NCBI RefSeq assembly: GCF_027409185.1
Contig: NC_084467.1
Location: forward strand, 83,212,501-83,276,500
Direction: 5' to 3'
From: Cynocephalus volans
Taxonomy: Eukaryota > Chordata > Mammalia > Dermoptera > Cynocephalidae
Length of the DNA stretch: 64,000 nt
In this document: piece after piece, positions 42,091 through 45,135 of the stretch
Layout of the letters: each line of letters opens with the position of its first letter
How positions within the stretch are numbered: the first letter of the stretch is position 1
Notes under the pieces: model-generated
What the model was told of the DNA's origin: nothing
The model's input: the letters and a program-made list of their open reading frames with translations, nothing else
Database searches by the model: none
Program-made: the position numbers and the translations under genes

Positions 42091-45000
42091 CTAATCCTTA
42101 AGCATGGACAGCCAAACGTCAGGGTTGGCCCCCTGTTCCAGGGCTAGAAATGCCTGGGCGATGACTACCCTGTCTCTCTGGGTCTGGGCTTTTAATCTGC
42201 AGACCAACCATAGTAGGAGCACAGTTCCCCCACATAAGAACATGCCAACCCCAATCACTCCTGCCCACTCCTTGAAGTGGGACACGGCCGTTTTAATCCA
42301 TGAGGACAGTCCGGCTGCGAAGGAGACATCCACTCTTGTTGAATTCACGGACACAATGGCCATGCGCAGCTGGTTTATCAGGTTGTCAAATTCTCTCGTC
42401 CAACCTGTTGAAAGATGCTGGGATAATTGTTTAGACAAATTTGCAGCTTTGGTATACTTTTTATATTGGATACTGGTGACACATAACCCTGAATATTTCC
42501 ATTGACACCCCAATTGAGCAATTTGCCATAAAACATCTATTTGTTCCTGCACAAGATCCACCCGCTGGTTAACCACCATTAATCCTCCCTTCAGCTGAGC
42601 GTTTAGCGCAGTCTGTGTTTTTAGGGCCTGTGTTACCGCGGAGGACAAATTATTCAACGTGGTGGCAGTCTGTACCGTGGTAGTCAAGGAGACGGCAGCA
42701 GCTGTGGCTGCACCCGCCGCCAGGGATACGGCGGCGACTATTGCCGCAGTGAGACCAAAATCCCTCTTTTGTCTGAACAAGACCATAGTATTGGGAGCTT
42801 CTACTGGGACAGGAATCCATCTAGGCATTCGAGCAACTATGGCCAAATTGAACAGCGTAGCATTCCGGCACTGTGCATAAAAGCAAGTATCATTATTGCA
42901 AGAGACCTGACTCCCCTCAGTACTAATATTACTTAAAATAAACATGAAAGGAGGATACAGGCAAACTGGTGTTGGCAAGACAGACACATTATATCCCGGC
43001 TGCAATATGGACACACAGGTTTCAAAGCACTCGGTAGTATTCCACTGAAAAGTGGCATTTCCCCAACCACCGCCCTTTAAAAAGGCGAACGGTGAAAGGT
43101 CCGTGCAGCTGCCATTCACCCCACACAACAGCCAAACATCAAATGGGTTGGAACGGATCGCCATCGTGGGGTTTTGATATGTCCAATTTAGGCCTGAAGA
43201 GGTAGCATTATACTGGGTACCCATATAAGGCGAAAAGGTAAAGTAATTTTTTAGTGCCCACCCCGCCTTTTTAGACTGGCAGCCCGTCCAGGGCGGGGTA
43301 TCTCCCTCCCTTTCTCCTCGACTCTGGTTGGCCTTGTCCCCATACTTGTGGGGGCCCTGGGAACGGGGGCCCATCTTCACGTTTTTTTGAACCACTTGGT
43401 GTTGTTCTGTGAGCGGCGGAAGGAGTCGCCCTTTGATATCTCTAATGGAACGGCAGAGAGCAGCCTTATGATATCCCTTGGAACAGCGGGAACAGAGGGA
43501 GTCTGTACTCTGGGGGCCCTTATCCCTGTCCGGGGCTTGGCAGTCCCTTTTTAAATGTCCCGGTTGACCGCATTTAAAACAAACTCTCTGGTTCCGCCCC
43601 TGTCTTGGCTGTCCCTGTCTAGGCAGTCTCTGCGACTGGAGGATGGCAGCTGCCAGCCCTGCATTGGTCAGGGGTCCCCCGAGTTCTCGACAAGTTCTGA
43701 GCCAATCCTGTAAACCTTTACCCTTTCTGGGCGCTATAGCCGTGCGGCATTCCTGGGTAGCCTGTTCAAAAATCAGTTGCTCAACAAGAGGCGCAGCCTG
43801 ATCAGGGTCCCCAAAGATGCGCCCCGCTGCTTCTGTCATTCGAGCCACAAAATCTGAGAATGGTTCCTGAGGTCCCTGAATGATCTTAGTAAGTTGTCCA
43901 GAAGCTTCCCCTTTTTTGGGGAGTGCCTTCCAAGCCTTAATGGCAGTGCTAGAAACTTGAACATAAGCACCCCATGGGAAAGCCGTCTGATCAGCGGCAA
44001 ATGGGCCCTGGCCTGTTAACATATCAAAGGTCCAATCTCGCTGCTCGGGGGTCAGTGCAGCAGCGTTTGCCCTGGCTTGAGCTTGTGCAGCCTCATGCCA
44101 TAGCGCCTTCCATTCCATGTATTGACCCATGGTAGGGAGCGCTGCCTTAGCCAACATTTGCCAGTCAGCGGGTGTCATAGCCACACCAGCAAACCTTTCT
44201 AGCATTACTAGAGTAAAATTGGCATTTACACCATATTTTCTAACCGCCTCTGCTAGATCCTTAATTTGGGTGTACTCGACGGGGGCATGAACTCTCCCTC
44301 CGCCCTCAACCTCAAAAACTGGGAAGGCAGCTTGAACCTTTTTCCTCACTTTATCAGAGAGGAATGAGAAGGGATTAGAAGACTGCATGTAAGGAGGAGG
44401 CGCCGAAGGCGCAGGCCGTGCGGGGGCCACTGGGGGCGGCCGGCATTTCCACTCCCCGAGTGGTCTCCGCCGCCTGTCGGGATGATATCTCTCCTCCTCG
44501 TACCTGGCAGCTTCCTCCTCCAAATCGGATTCCTCACTAGGGCTGAGGGGATCGGAGTCGGACTCATCCAGATTTAAATCTTCTAATTCTTGTTTTAAGG
44601 CCCCCAGCTCTTGCATAGGGTAGAGGCCTCCTTCTTTCCCTTCCAACTTTTGTCTGGGTTTTGAAATCCCTCCTTTACCGGCAGATGTGCCGGGAGTGTC
44701 ACTTTGTTGTTTTAGAATCTCTCCCTCGTCCGTAGACTTACCGGGAGGGCCCTTTTTCTTATGGGAGACGTCTCTCCTCCTGCGGGTACCCATCCTCTCA
44801 CTCCGTTCAGTTTCTGACATGCTGTCTTGGACCTCCTCTAATGTATTTTGCCCTACTATCACTACCGGTTTACAGCCCTCATCTTCTAAGCAATTTTTAA
44901 TAAACTTCCAAATGGTCTTGGTGCCCTGACGGAGGTCTCCCTCCGCGTACTTGCGGTCAAGGTCTCTGCCTAGTTTGTTCCAAGAGCTCAAAGTCAAGGA

Positions 45001-45135
45001 GCCGGAACAAGCAAACCACGGCGCTACACGATCTACCTCTTTTACAAAATTTTTGAGCACACGGCCCCCTACCTTTATATCACGTTGTCTCAGCACGGCC
45101 TCTAACGCGGTAACCATGGACTGAGTGGAACCCAT
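42091..45135 (-). CDS. chimeric Gag-Env protein, intact 1,014-codon frame
   Basis: One uninterrupted frame. The first ATG (45135-45133) gives MGSTQS, a good N-myristoylation signal. An in-frame GTG four codons upstream would not, so the ATG is chosen. The Gag part has a matrix region, an acidic Glu/Asp stretch (about 184-218), overlapping late-domain motifs PSAP (243-246) and PPPY (246-249), a capsid with the major homology region (about 420-440, QGPQEPFSDFVAR), and two CCHC zinc knuckles (519-532 and 548-561). Somewhere between about residues 580 and 635 it passes, without a stop, into Env: the end of SU with about nine N-glycosylation sequons, a furin site RQKR (788-791), a fusion-peptide-like hydrophobic stretch (793-814), a CX7C loop (877-885), a membrane anchor (959-979) and a 35-residue tail. 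No Env signal peptide remains, so membrane routing of the fusion is uncertain. Gag is betaretrovirus/IAP-like. The missing pro-pol makes it a deletion product; whether it is translated or has a role is unknown. Confidence 0.93.
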   Translation of the reverse strand: MGSTQSMVTALEAVLRQRDIKVGGRVLKNFVKEVDRVAPWFACSGSLTLSSWNKLGRDLDRKYAEGDLRQGTKTIWKFIKNCLEDEGCKPVVIVGQNTLEEVQDSMSETERSERMGTRRRRDVSHKKKGPPGKSTDEGEILKQQSDTPGTSAGKGGISKPRQKLEGKEGGLYPMQELGALKQELEDLNLDESDSDPLSPSEESDLEEEAARYEEERYHPDRRRRPLGEWKCRPPPVAPARPAPSAPPPYMQSSNPFSFLSDKVRKKVQAAFPVFEVEGGGRVHAPVEYTQIKDLAEAVRKYGVNANFTLVMLERFAGVAMTPADWQMLAKAALPTMGQYMEWKALWHEAAQAQARANAAALTPEQRDWTFDMLTGQGPFAADQTAFPWGAYVQVSSTAIKAWKALPKKGEASGQLTKIIQGPQEPFSDFVARMTEAAGRIFGDPDQAAPLVEQLIFEQATQECRTAIAPRKGKGLQDWLRTCRELGGPLTNAGLAAAILQSQRLPRQGQPRQGRNQRVCFKCGQPGHLKRDCQAPDRDKGPQSTDSLCSRCSKGYHKAALCRSIRDIKGRLLPPLTEQHQVVQKNVKMGPRSQGPHKYGDKANQSRGEREGDTPPWTGCQSKKAGWALKNYFTFSPYMGTQYNATSSGLNWTYQNPTMAIRSNPFDVWLLCGVNGSCTDLSPFAFLKGGGWGNATFQWNTTECFETCVSILQPGYNVSVLPTPVCLYPPFMFILSNISTEGSQVSCNNDTCFYAQCRNATLFNLAIVARMPRWIPVPVEAPNTMVLFRQKRDFGLTAAIVAAVSLAAGAATAAAVSLTTTVQTATTLNNLSSAVTQALKTQTALNAQLKGGLMVVNQRVDLVQEQIDVLWQIAQLGCQWKYSGLCVTSIQYKKYTKAANLSKQLSQHLSTGWTREFDNLINQLRMAIVSVNSTRVDVSFAAGLSSWIKTAVSHFKEWAGVIGVGMFLCGGTVLLLWLVCRLKAQTQRDRVVIAQAFLALEQGANPDVWLSMLKD

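What the first reader, a model, noticed from the sequence alone, without database searches (positions are those of the whole stretch)
42091..45135. Intact in-frame Gag-Env fusion in a recent provirus
The sequence shows 1,014 codons without a stop, running from a myristoylated Gag with two zinc knuckles straight into the end of SU and a complete TM. Retroviral Gag and Env are normally separate frames with pro-pol between them, and Env is made from a spliced RNA. A deletion of roughly 4 kb that happens to keep frame, in a young copy with no later damage, could be a master element amplified in trans (as the IΔ1 class of mouse IAP is) or a new chimeric protein with Gag assembly and a membrane anchor in one chain. 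Retention of frame may also simply reflect youth.
Basis: partly seen in the sequence, partly recalled or inferred. Interest (0 to 1): 0.88.

Follow-up and report, generated by a model that had tools for sequence, protein, structure and literature searches.

The report
Swarm of in-frame Gag-Env fusion proviruses
The reported provirus really does encode one long Gag-Env fusion, and it is one of a large family of shortened retrovirus copies in this mammal's genome that lost their enzymes, kept spreading, and were joined in a readable frame more often than chance would give.

Summary
Confirmed and extended. The 1,014-codon ORF is intact, on the minus strand, in a young IAPE-like class II provirus (282-bp LTRs, 1 difference; TSD TCTTGC). 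It joins Gag residue ~610, just after an intact-looking gag-pro frameshift signal, to Env residue ~188 of 594. Host: probably a colugo (Cynocephalus volans Gag, 97%).

The exact junction occurs 3 times in the host genome; one further copy keeps the whole ORF. It belongs to a larger phenomenon. The genome holds 208 PBS sites but 27 of a pol marker, and in the samples read most copies are gag-env deletions. Two other junctions have 54 and 32 copies. Of 30 deletion copies in five classes, 28 have matching 6-bp TSDs. Of 17 sequenced junction classes, 14 keep gag and env in frame (1/3 expected, p=5e-5) and one lies in the -1 pro frame behind the frameshift signal. Seven unsequenced length classes show no such excess (3 of 7).

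Best reading: non-autonomous deletion derivatives mobilised by full-length relatives, in which junctions that let ribosomes read on into env were favoured, as reported for mouse IAP I-delta-1. Youth suffices to explain why individual ORFs are intact. A protein function is possible but unshown.

The parts
45408..45689 (-). 5' LTR, 282 bp, TG...CA
   Evidence: direct repeat with 41512-41793, 1 difference in 282
41512..41793 (-). 3' LTR, 282 bp
45690..45695 (.). target site duplication TCTTGC, upstream copy in element sense
   Evidence: joined flanks align through the site to other repeat copies in the window
41506..41511 (.). target site duplication TCTTGC, downstream copy in element sense
45388..45405 (-). 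primer binding site TGGTGCCGAAACCCGGGA (tRNA-Phe type; tRNA assignment recalled)
   Evidence: sequence; a 31-mer around it at 208 genome sites with up to 2 mismatches
45320..45321 (-). splice-donor-like GT (GTAAGT) in the leader; untested
   Evidence: sequence
42091..45135 (-). Gag-Env fusion ORF, 1,014 codons and stop
43306..45135 (-). Gag part, residues 1-610 (native Gag ends about 20 residues later in the colugo relative P0086)
44884..45123 (-). matrix domain (Pfam Gag_p10)
43696..44289 (-). capsid (Gag_p24 and Gag_p24_C)
   Evidence: PDB sequence matches
43408..43587 (-). two nucleocapsid zinc knuckles
43381..43387 (-). A AAA AAC slippery heptamer in gag frame (putative gag-pro -1 frameshift site)
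   Evidence: KNxxxGPxSQGP spacing in 109 of 120 listed Gag relatives, 118 of 120 with a relaxed motif
43336..43372 (-). predicted H-type pseudoknot, 8 nt downstream of the heptamer
   Evidence: 1 of 5000 dinucleotide shuffles has one by the same rule; plain MFE of the stretch is not unusual
43305..43313 (-). deletion junction, in a short purine-rich stretch
   Evidence: 3 genome copies
43271..43273 (-). stop codon of the -1 (pro) frame: a frameshifted product would be Gag plus 36 residues, without Env
42094..43305 (-). Env part: C-terminal SU fragment and complete TM
42763..42774 (-). RQKR, furin-type SU/TM cleavage motif (motif recalled)
42673..42765 (-). hydrophobic segment at the fusion-peptide position
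42184..42270 (-). membrane-spanning segment of TM
41794..41809 (-). polypurine tract
   Evidence: sequence; a 32-mer across it and the LTR start at 209 genome sites

Best explanation
The element is a non-autonomous deletion derivative of a young IAPE-like class II (betaretrovirus-like) endogenous retrovirus, probably of a colugo. SHOWN: in the copies read, most of its family are proviruses in which a deletion joins gag to env, removing pol and the Env start; many distinct junctions exist; several are amplified; most of the copies tested have their own target duplications, so they were inserted by integration. INFERRED: they lack their own enzymes, so full-length relatives supply them in trans; the deletions arose by strand transfer during reverse transcription. 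SHOWN statistically: the sequenced junctions keep gag and env in one frame more often than one in three. INFERRED: junctions that let ribosomes read from the gag start to the native env stop were favoured in mobilisation, either because the RNA then escapes surveillance of premature stops or because the translated product helps its own RNA in cis, as reported for mouse IAP I-delta-1. In the window copy the frameshift signal survives, so the Gag frame would give Gag-Env and the -1 frame Gag with a short tail.
For: Genome census: 208 PBS sites, 209 PPT sites, 27 sites of a pol 32-mer, each with up to 2 mismatches (reversed-pattern controls 0). 63 of 69 PBS-PPT pairs on C1-C4 and C10-C12 are under 4 kb (8 of the 77 listed PBS sites there had no listed partner). 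Env-blind sample: 15 of 16 fetched PBS loci on C13/C15 are gag-env deletions, 1 has pol; three of the 15 are one tandem array. Frames: 14 of 17 sequenced classes in gag frame, p=4.7e-5; 13 of 16 without the reported one, p=1.2e-4; 11 of 14 in a set restricted to classes met through fetched PBS loci plus A, p=7e-4 (my choice of set, C and E were left out of it although their PBS sites are listed too). Class N (L056, L062) has env in the pro frame, behind the frameshift site; L056 is open from there to the Env end. 28 of 30 class A-E copies have matching 6-bp TSDs. Copies: A 3, B 54, F 32. Mean LTR divergence 0.53% over 28 copies, 8 with none. Precedents: I-delta-1 (PMC7411935, passages) and bovine ERVK D-type elements, 85% of their clade (PMC10924933, passages).
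Against: Seven further length classes, not sequenced, show 3 of 7 in frame by length, no excess; sequenced and unsequenced together 17 of 24, p=1.9e-4. Sequenced classes seen once are also mostly in frame, which selection acting only at re-mobilisation does not predict by itself. No expression or protein data. dN/dS in the env part of 14 open class B copies (6 synonymous, 10 non-synonymous singletons) is too little to reject neutrality. A 145-bp env deletion that breaks the frame occurs in several inserted copies and an array (L010, L016, L017, L032, L049, L043/L044), so a broken frame is no absolute bar. Helper activity in trans is inferred only.
Confidence: 0.72

Rival explanations
1. Youth and chance only: deletion copies are mobilised passively in trans, frame is irrelevant, and the ORFs are open because they are recent.
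For: P(intact ORF) about 0.5 for this copy; class B env changes compatible with neutrality; unsequenced length classes 3 of 7 in frame; frame-broken derivatives were also inserted.
Against: 14 of 17 sequenced junctions in frame, p=4.7e-5. Youth cannot set the frame of a new deletion.
Confidence: 0.15
2. Sub-reading of the best explanation: the chimeric protein itself was selected, a myristoylated matrix domain at one end and the TM anchor and tail at the other, acting in particles made by helper Gag (helping its own RNA) or poisoning them as a dominant-negative.
For: At the junction, every in-frame class keeps at least about 188 Gag residues and everything from residue ~473 of the 594-residue env run on; capsid, nucleocapsid, SU and fusion peptide are each missing in some class. 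I-delta-1 makes a fusion protein that facilitates its own retrotransposition (PMC7411935, passage).
Against: The same ends may be kept for RNA packaging and export signals. No dN/dS support after fusion. Signal peptide lost, so membrane insertion is uncertain. The copies of K and G that were read carry later stops or indels.
Confidence: 0.25
3. Sub-reading of the best explanation: RNA surveillance. The full-length RNA is protected from nonsense-mediated decay by elements lost in the deletions, so that deletion RNAs whose ORF runs to the native env stop near the 3' end persist better.
For: Retroviral full-length RNA has features that invite decay and Rous sarcoma virus carries a stability element (PMC2925335, title and start of abstract in the listing). 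It would explain a frame preference that is indifferent to which protein domains remain.
Against: Untested here; the 145-bp frame-broken derivatives were inserted in several places although their ORF ends about 0.9 kb before the 3' LTR.
Confidence: 0.35
4. Assembly artefact or post-insertion deletion in a single locus.
For: None found.
Against: Three loci with the junction, different flanks, L010 with its own TSD; matching TSD and near-identical LTRs at the window copy.
Confidence: 0.01

Closest known systems
Mouse IAP I-delta-1 (non-autonomous IAP with Gag-Pol fusion ORF)
   Same: IAP-related element, internal deletion, fusion ORF starting with Gag, needs proteins in trans (PMC7411935, passages)
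   Different: There a deletion in gag-pol giving Gag-Pol; here many independent Gag-Env junctions, with pol wholly lost
Mouse IAPE (env-bearing infectious relative and progenitor type of IAP; PMC2531183, passages)
   Same: Gag with a myristoylation-type start (recalled for IAPE), GP41-type Env, related Gag and Env proteins in rodents, lemurs and pangolins or colugo
   Different: The window copy is defective; listed rodent relatives are about 35-63% identical in Env and 61-70% in Gag residues 400-624
Bovine ERVK[2-1-LTR] D-type elements
   Same: Defective forms make up 85% of the clade and keep gag and env flanks around a lost centre (PMC10924933, passages)
   Different: D-type centre is swapped for old retroelement sequence and carries no functional genes; here gag and env are directly joined, mostly in frame
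CynVolERV-B1 in Cynocephalus volans
   Same: Deleted variants amplified in the probable same host species (PMC11928578, passages)
   Different: GALV/KoRV-like, another kind of retrovirus; the deletions lie within pol and within env

Membership tests
IAPE/IAP-like class II (betaretrovirus-like) ERV | Betaretroviral Gag (p10, p24, two knuckles) closest to IAP-type Gag | tested here: met
   Pfam; best Gag relatives are colugo and rodent 'igE-binding protein-like' proteins, mouse 67-70% in residues 400-624
IAPE/IAP-like class II (betaretrovirus-like) ERV | 6-bp target site duplication | tested here: met
   TCTTGC at the window copy; 28 of 30 class A-E copies match
IAPE/IAP-like class II (betaretrovirus-like) ERV | tRNA-Phe type PBS | tested here: inconclusive
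   Sequence TGGTGCCGAAACCCGGGA; assignment to tRNA-Phe is recalled, host tRNA not searched
IAPE/IAP-like class II (betaretrovirus-like) ERV | Beta-type TM with CX7C and GP41 domain | tested here: met
   Pfam GP41 49 bits, cut-off 29.6; CQWKYSGLC in the translation; CX7C also named as typical of beta- and lentiviral TM in PMC10924933 (passage)
IAPE/IAP-like class II (betaretrovirus-like) ERV | gag-pro -1 frameshift signal | tested here: met
   A AAA AAC and predicted pseudoknot; spacing of codons conserved in 109 (strict) or 118 (relaxed) of 120 listed relatives; function not tested
Non-autonomous ERV with in-cis active fusion ORF (I-delta-1 kind) | Enzyme genes lost, copies inserted by retrotransposition | tested here: met
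   pol identity of the relative's marker region by Pfam RVT, RNase H, rve
Non-autonomous ERV with in-cis active fusion ORF (I-delta-1 kind) | Gag-Pol fusion ORF | tested here: not met
   No pol in the fusion; Gag-Env instead
Non-autonomous ERV with in-cis active fusion ORF (I-delta-1 kind) | Translation of the fusion raises mobilisation | not testable with these tools
   Only the frame statistics point that way
Domesticated Env or Gag gene | Purifying selection on a single retained locus | tested here: inconclusive
   Many young copies; class B env changes compatible with neutrality; fixation not testable

The most novel reading that the evidence does not exclude
In this genome the Gag-Env chimera is itself the unit of selection: any protein with a myristoylated matrix start and a TM anchor and tail, produced from the deleted RNA, brings that RNA into helper particles, so that new in-frame gag-env junctions are repeatedly captured and amplified while everything between the two ends is dispensable.
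Probability: 0.25. Interest if true: 0.8.

Novelty: new variant of a known kind. Interest (0 to 1): 0.62.

Why it matters
Defective retroviral copies can outnumber competent ones, and it is open why particular defective forms win. Here one genome holds at least 17 gag-env deletion classes with a measurable frame bias, a natural experiment on whether translation of a defective element decides its spread. A complete junction census would test this directly, without any bench work.

Tried and rejected
Assembly artefact or unique event: rejected by three loci with the junction. Plain folding of the stretch after the slippery site: no signal; the pseudoknot needed a specific rule. A first regular expression for the KN-GPxSQGP spacing was mis-written and gave 0 of 120; corrected. 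Viral contig collection: no relatives of the Env or Gag pieces and no junction. Rfam on the window: no match at gathering score. dN/dS for gag was discarded as a test of the fusion because a few class B copies carry divergent, probably recombinant gag; the one-of-each comparison there may suffer from misalignment of short classes and is not used. Length modulo 3 as a frame proxy proved noisy: L064 is out by length but in frame by sequence, L062 the reverse; clusters that were class B or F copies with later indels were dropped (3239-3241, 3276, 3377; 2964-2971, 3179) before the last count, 11 of 16, p=0.004 (before dropping: 14 of 22, p=0.0035). The microhomology lengths printed are unreliable for class A and are not used. 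Class O (L058-L060) fell out of the table and was judged out of frame from its reading frames. Gag-Env stretches in four of 208 database proteins (P0056, P0078, P0088, P0114) may be spliced gene models and were not counted. 'Gag assembly plus anchor' as the shared property: rejected because classes E and H lack capsid.
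Full report
WHAT IS IN THE WINDOW. The reported ORF runs on the minus strand from 45135 to 42091, 1,014 codons and a stop. It sits in a 4,178-bp provirus with two 282-bp LTRs differing at one base, a PBS of the tRNA-Phe type (assignment recalled), a polypurine tract and a 6-bp target duplication, TCTTGC. The two flanks, joined in a script, align through the insertion point to two other repeat copies in the window, at 10982-12124 and 13760-14647 (L1-like by recall), which shows the empty site. 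Pfam finds Gag p10, p24 N and C, two zinc knuckles, and Env GP41. PDB sequence matches include HERV-K and other retroviral Gag chains for the Gag part and chains named for HERV-K for the Env part.

WHERE THE JUNCTION LIES. The best Gag relative in the region search (residues 400-624) of 5.8 billion proteins is an annotated colugo protein (Cynocephalus volans, P0086), 97% identical over 363 aligned residues; it continues about 20 residues further to the usual Gag end. The Env side matches relatives from about residue 615 on, in lemurs, rodents, pangolins and unnamed contigs; the best near-full-length match is 58%. Genome copies place the join at window 43305-43313, in a short purine-rich stretch. 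It falls about 23-31 nt downstream of a complete-looking gag-pro frameshift signal: heptamer A AAA AAC at 43387-43381 and a predicted H-type pseudoknot at 43372-43336, found by the same rule in 1 of 5,000 dinucleotide shuffles. So the 0 frame would now yield Gag-Env and the -1 frame Gag plus 36 residues and no Env.

HOST GENOME. The window lies in a 2.81-Gb assembly of 130 contigs. The junction 37-mer occurs at exactly three places with up to 3 mismatches, control 0. L009 (C15) keeps the full 1,014-codon ORF but its flanks do not match as a TSD; L010 (C12) has its own TSD, GTAGAG, and a 145-bp deletion in env that breaks the frame.

A SWARM OF DELETIONS. The env side of the query matched 37 further places (40 of 222 candidates were scored). 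All 32 of these outside one tandem array were fetched: 27 are gag-env deletions with four other junctions (B 22, C 2, D 1, E 2) and 5 are pol-bearing (pol identity checked by Pfam on one of them, L039). Together with class A that is 30 deletion copies, of which 28 have matching 6-bp duplications (not L009, and L018 differs at one base) and 19 are open from an MGS start to the native Env end (A 2 of 3, B 14 of 22, C 1 of 2, D 1 of 1, E 1 of 2). To avoid the env bias, the PBS was searched: 208 sites, the first 100 listed. Of the 16 unseen PBS loci on C13 and C15, 15 are gag-env deletions and 1 has pol; three of the 15 belong to one tandem array of a relative about 79% identical in gag. Seven of the 16 are open to the native Env end. 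On C1-C4 and C10-C12, 69 of 77 listed PBS sites pair with a listed PPT; 63 are under 4 kb, 6 over 6 kb. A pol 32-mer is found 27 times. Class B has 54 copies, five of them in an array; class F has 32.

FRAME. Seventeen junction classes were sequenced. Fourteen (A, B, C, D, E, F, G, H, I, K, M, Q, R, S) keep the gag and env frames together; N (L056, L062, same junction) has env in the pro frame, behind the frameshift site; J (L053) and O (L058-L060) are out of frame. In frame here means at the junction; some copies carry later stops or indels (for example L046, L054, L066). Against one third, p=4.7e-5; without the reported class 13 of 16, p=1.2e-4; in a set of 14 classes met through fetched PBS loci plus A, 11 of 14, p=7e-4. 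Some classes are nested and could descend from one another by a second deletion, but each step would again have a one-third chance of keeping frame. Length classes not sequenced give 3 of 7 in frame by length; pooled 17 of 24, p=1.9e-4. The excess therefore rests on the sequenced set.

WHAT IS KEPT. At the junctions of the in-frame classes the gag side keeps at least about 188 residues (matrix) and the env side keeps the TM anchor and tail; capsid, nucleocapsid, SU and fusion peptide are each absent in some in-frame class; the Env start is absent in all 17. This points either to RNA signals at the two ends or to a minimal matrix-TM protein.

AGE AND SELECTION. LTR differences in 28 copies total 42 (mean 0.53%, about 1.2 My at 2.2e-9 per site and year, a rate also used for Cynocephalus volans in PMC11928578, passage); eight pairs are identical. 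For the window copy one difference in 282 gives about a 50% chance of staying intact without selection. In 14 open class B copies env shows 6 synonymous and 10 non-synonymous singletons, compatible with neutrality; gag is confounded by divergent, probably recombinant segments.

MECHANISM. Deletion during reverse transcription, mobilisation in trans by pol-bearing relatives, and preferential spread of junctions that leave one long ORF is the reading that fits best. In mouse, I-delta-1 elements make a Gag-Pol fusion that facilitates retrotransposition in cis while needing Gag and Pol in trans (PMC7411935, passages); a paper whose title says that translation from the non-autonomous IAP type is critical for transposition was seen only as a reference in PMC10924933 and is not held. 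Bovine ERVK D-type elements, 85% of their clade, keep gag and env flanks and dominate new insertions (PMC10924933, passages). Whether frame matters through RNA surveillance (PMC2925335, start of abstract in a listing) or through the protein is open.

NOVELTY. In the held library, searches for Gag-Env fusions in endogenous retroviruses listed no paper, one paper on lentiviral Env incorporation, two on other ERV lineages and seven papers with such phrases, HTLV reviews or diagnostics and one vaccine study; these were seen as listings only and not opened. Most subscription papers are not held, so this is a limited statement. I judge it a new variant of a known kind: non-autonomous ERVs with a fusion ORF, here Gag-Env, of many independent origins and biased in frame.

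Noticed in passing
L043, L044 (G000:C4:148248500-148269900): Tandem array of at least five LTR-internal units of 3,534 bp, class B with the 145-bp env deletion in the units read, sharing LTRs head to tail.
   Followed up: partly
L058-L060 (G000:C15:138602091-138613095): Tandem array, unit about 3,132 bp, of a relative about 79% identical in gag, with an out-of-frame gag-env junction.
   Followed up: partly
G000:C4:154042780-154057646: Three PPT hits and three pol-marker hits spaced about 6,570 bp: probably a third tandem array, pol-bearing.
   Followed up: no
window 42798-42943: A 145-bp env deletion at this place recurs in copies of different junction classes (L010 in A; L016, L017, L032, L049 in B; pol-bearing L027), which points to recombination between copies.
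   Followed up: partly
P0078, P0114 (Cricetulus griseus), P0088 (Cynocephalus volans), P0056: Database proteins with both Gag and Env stretches; gene models may be spliced, but the same kind of fusion may exist in hamster relatives.
   Followed up: no
window 1402-2142: A 246-codon minus-strand ORF in a stretch of about 50% GC without any Pfam match up to E=1.
   Followed up: no
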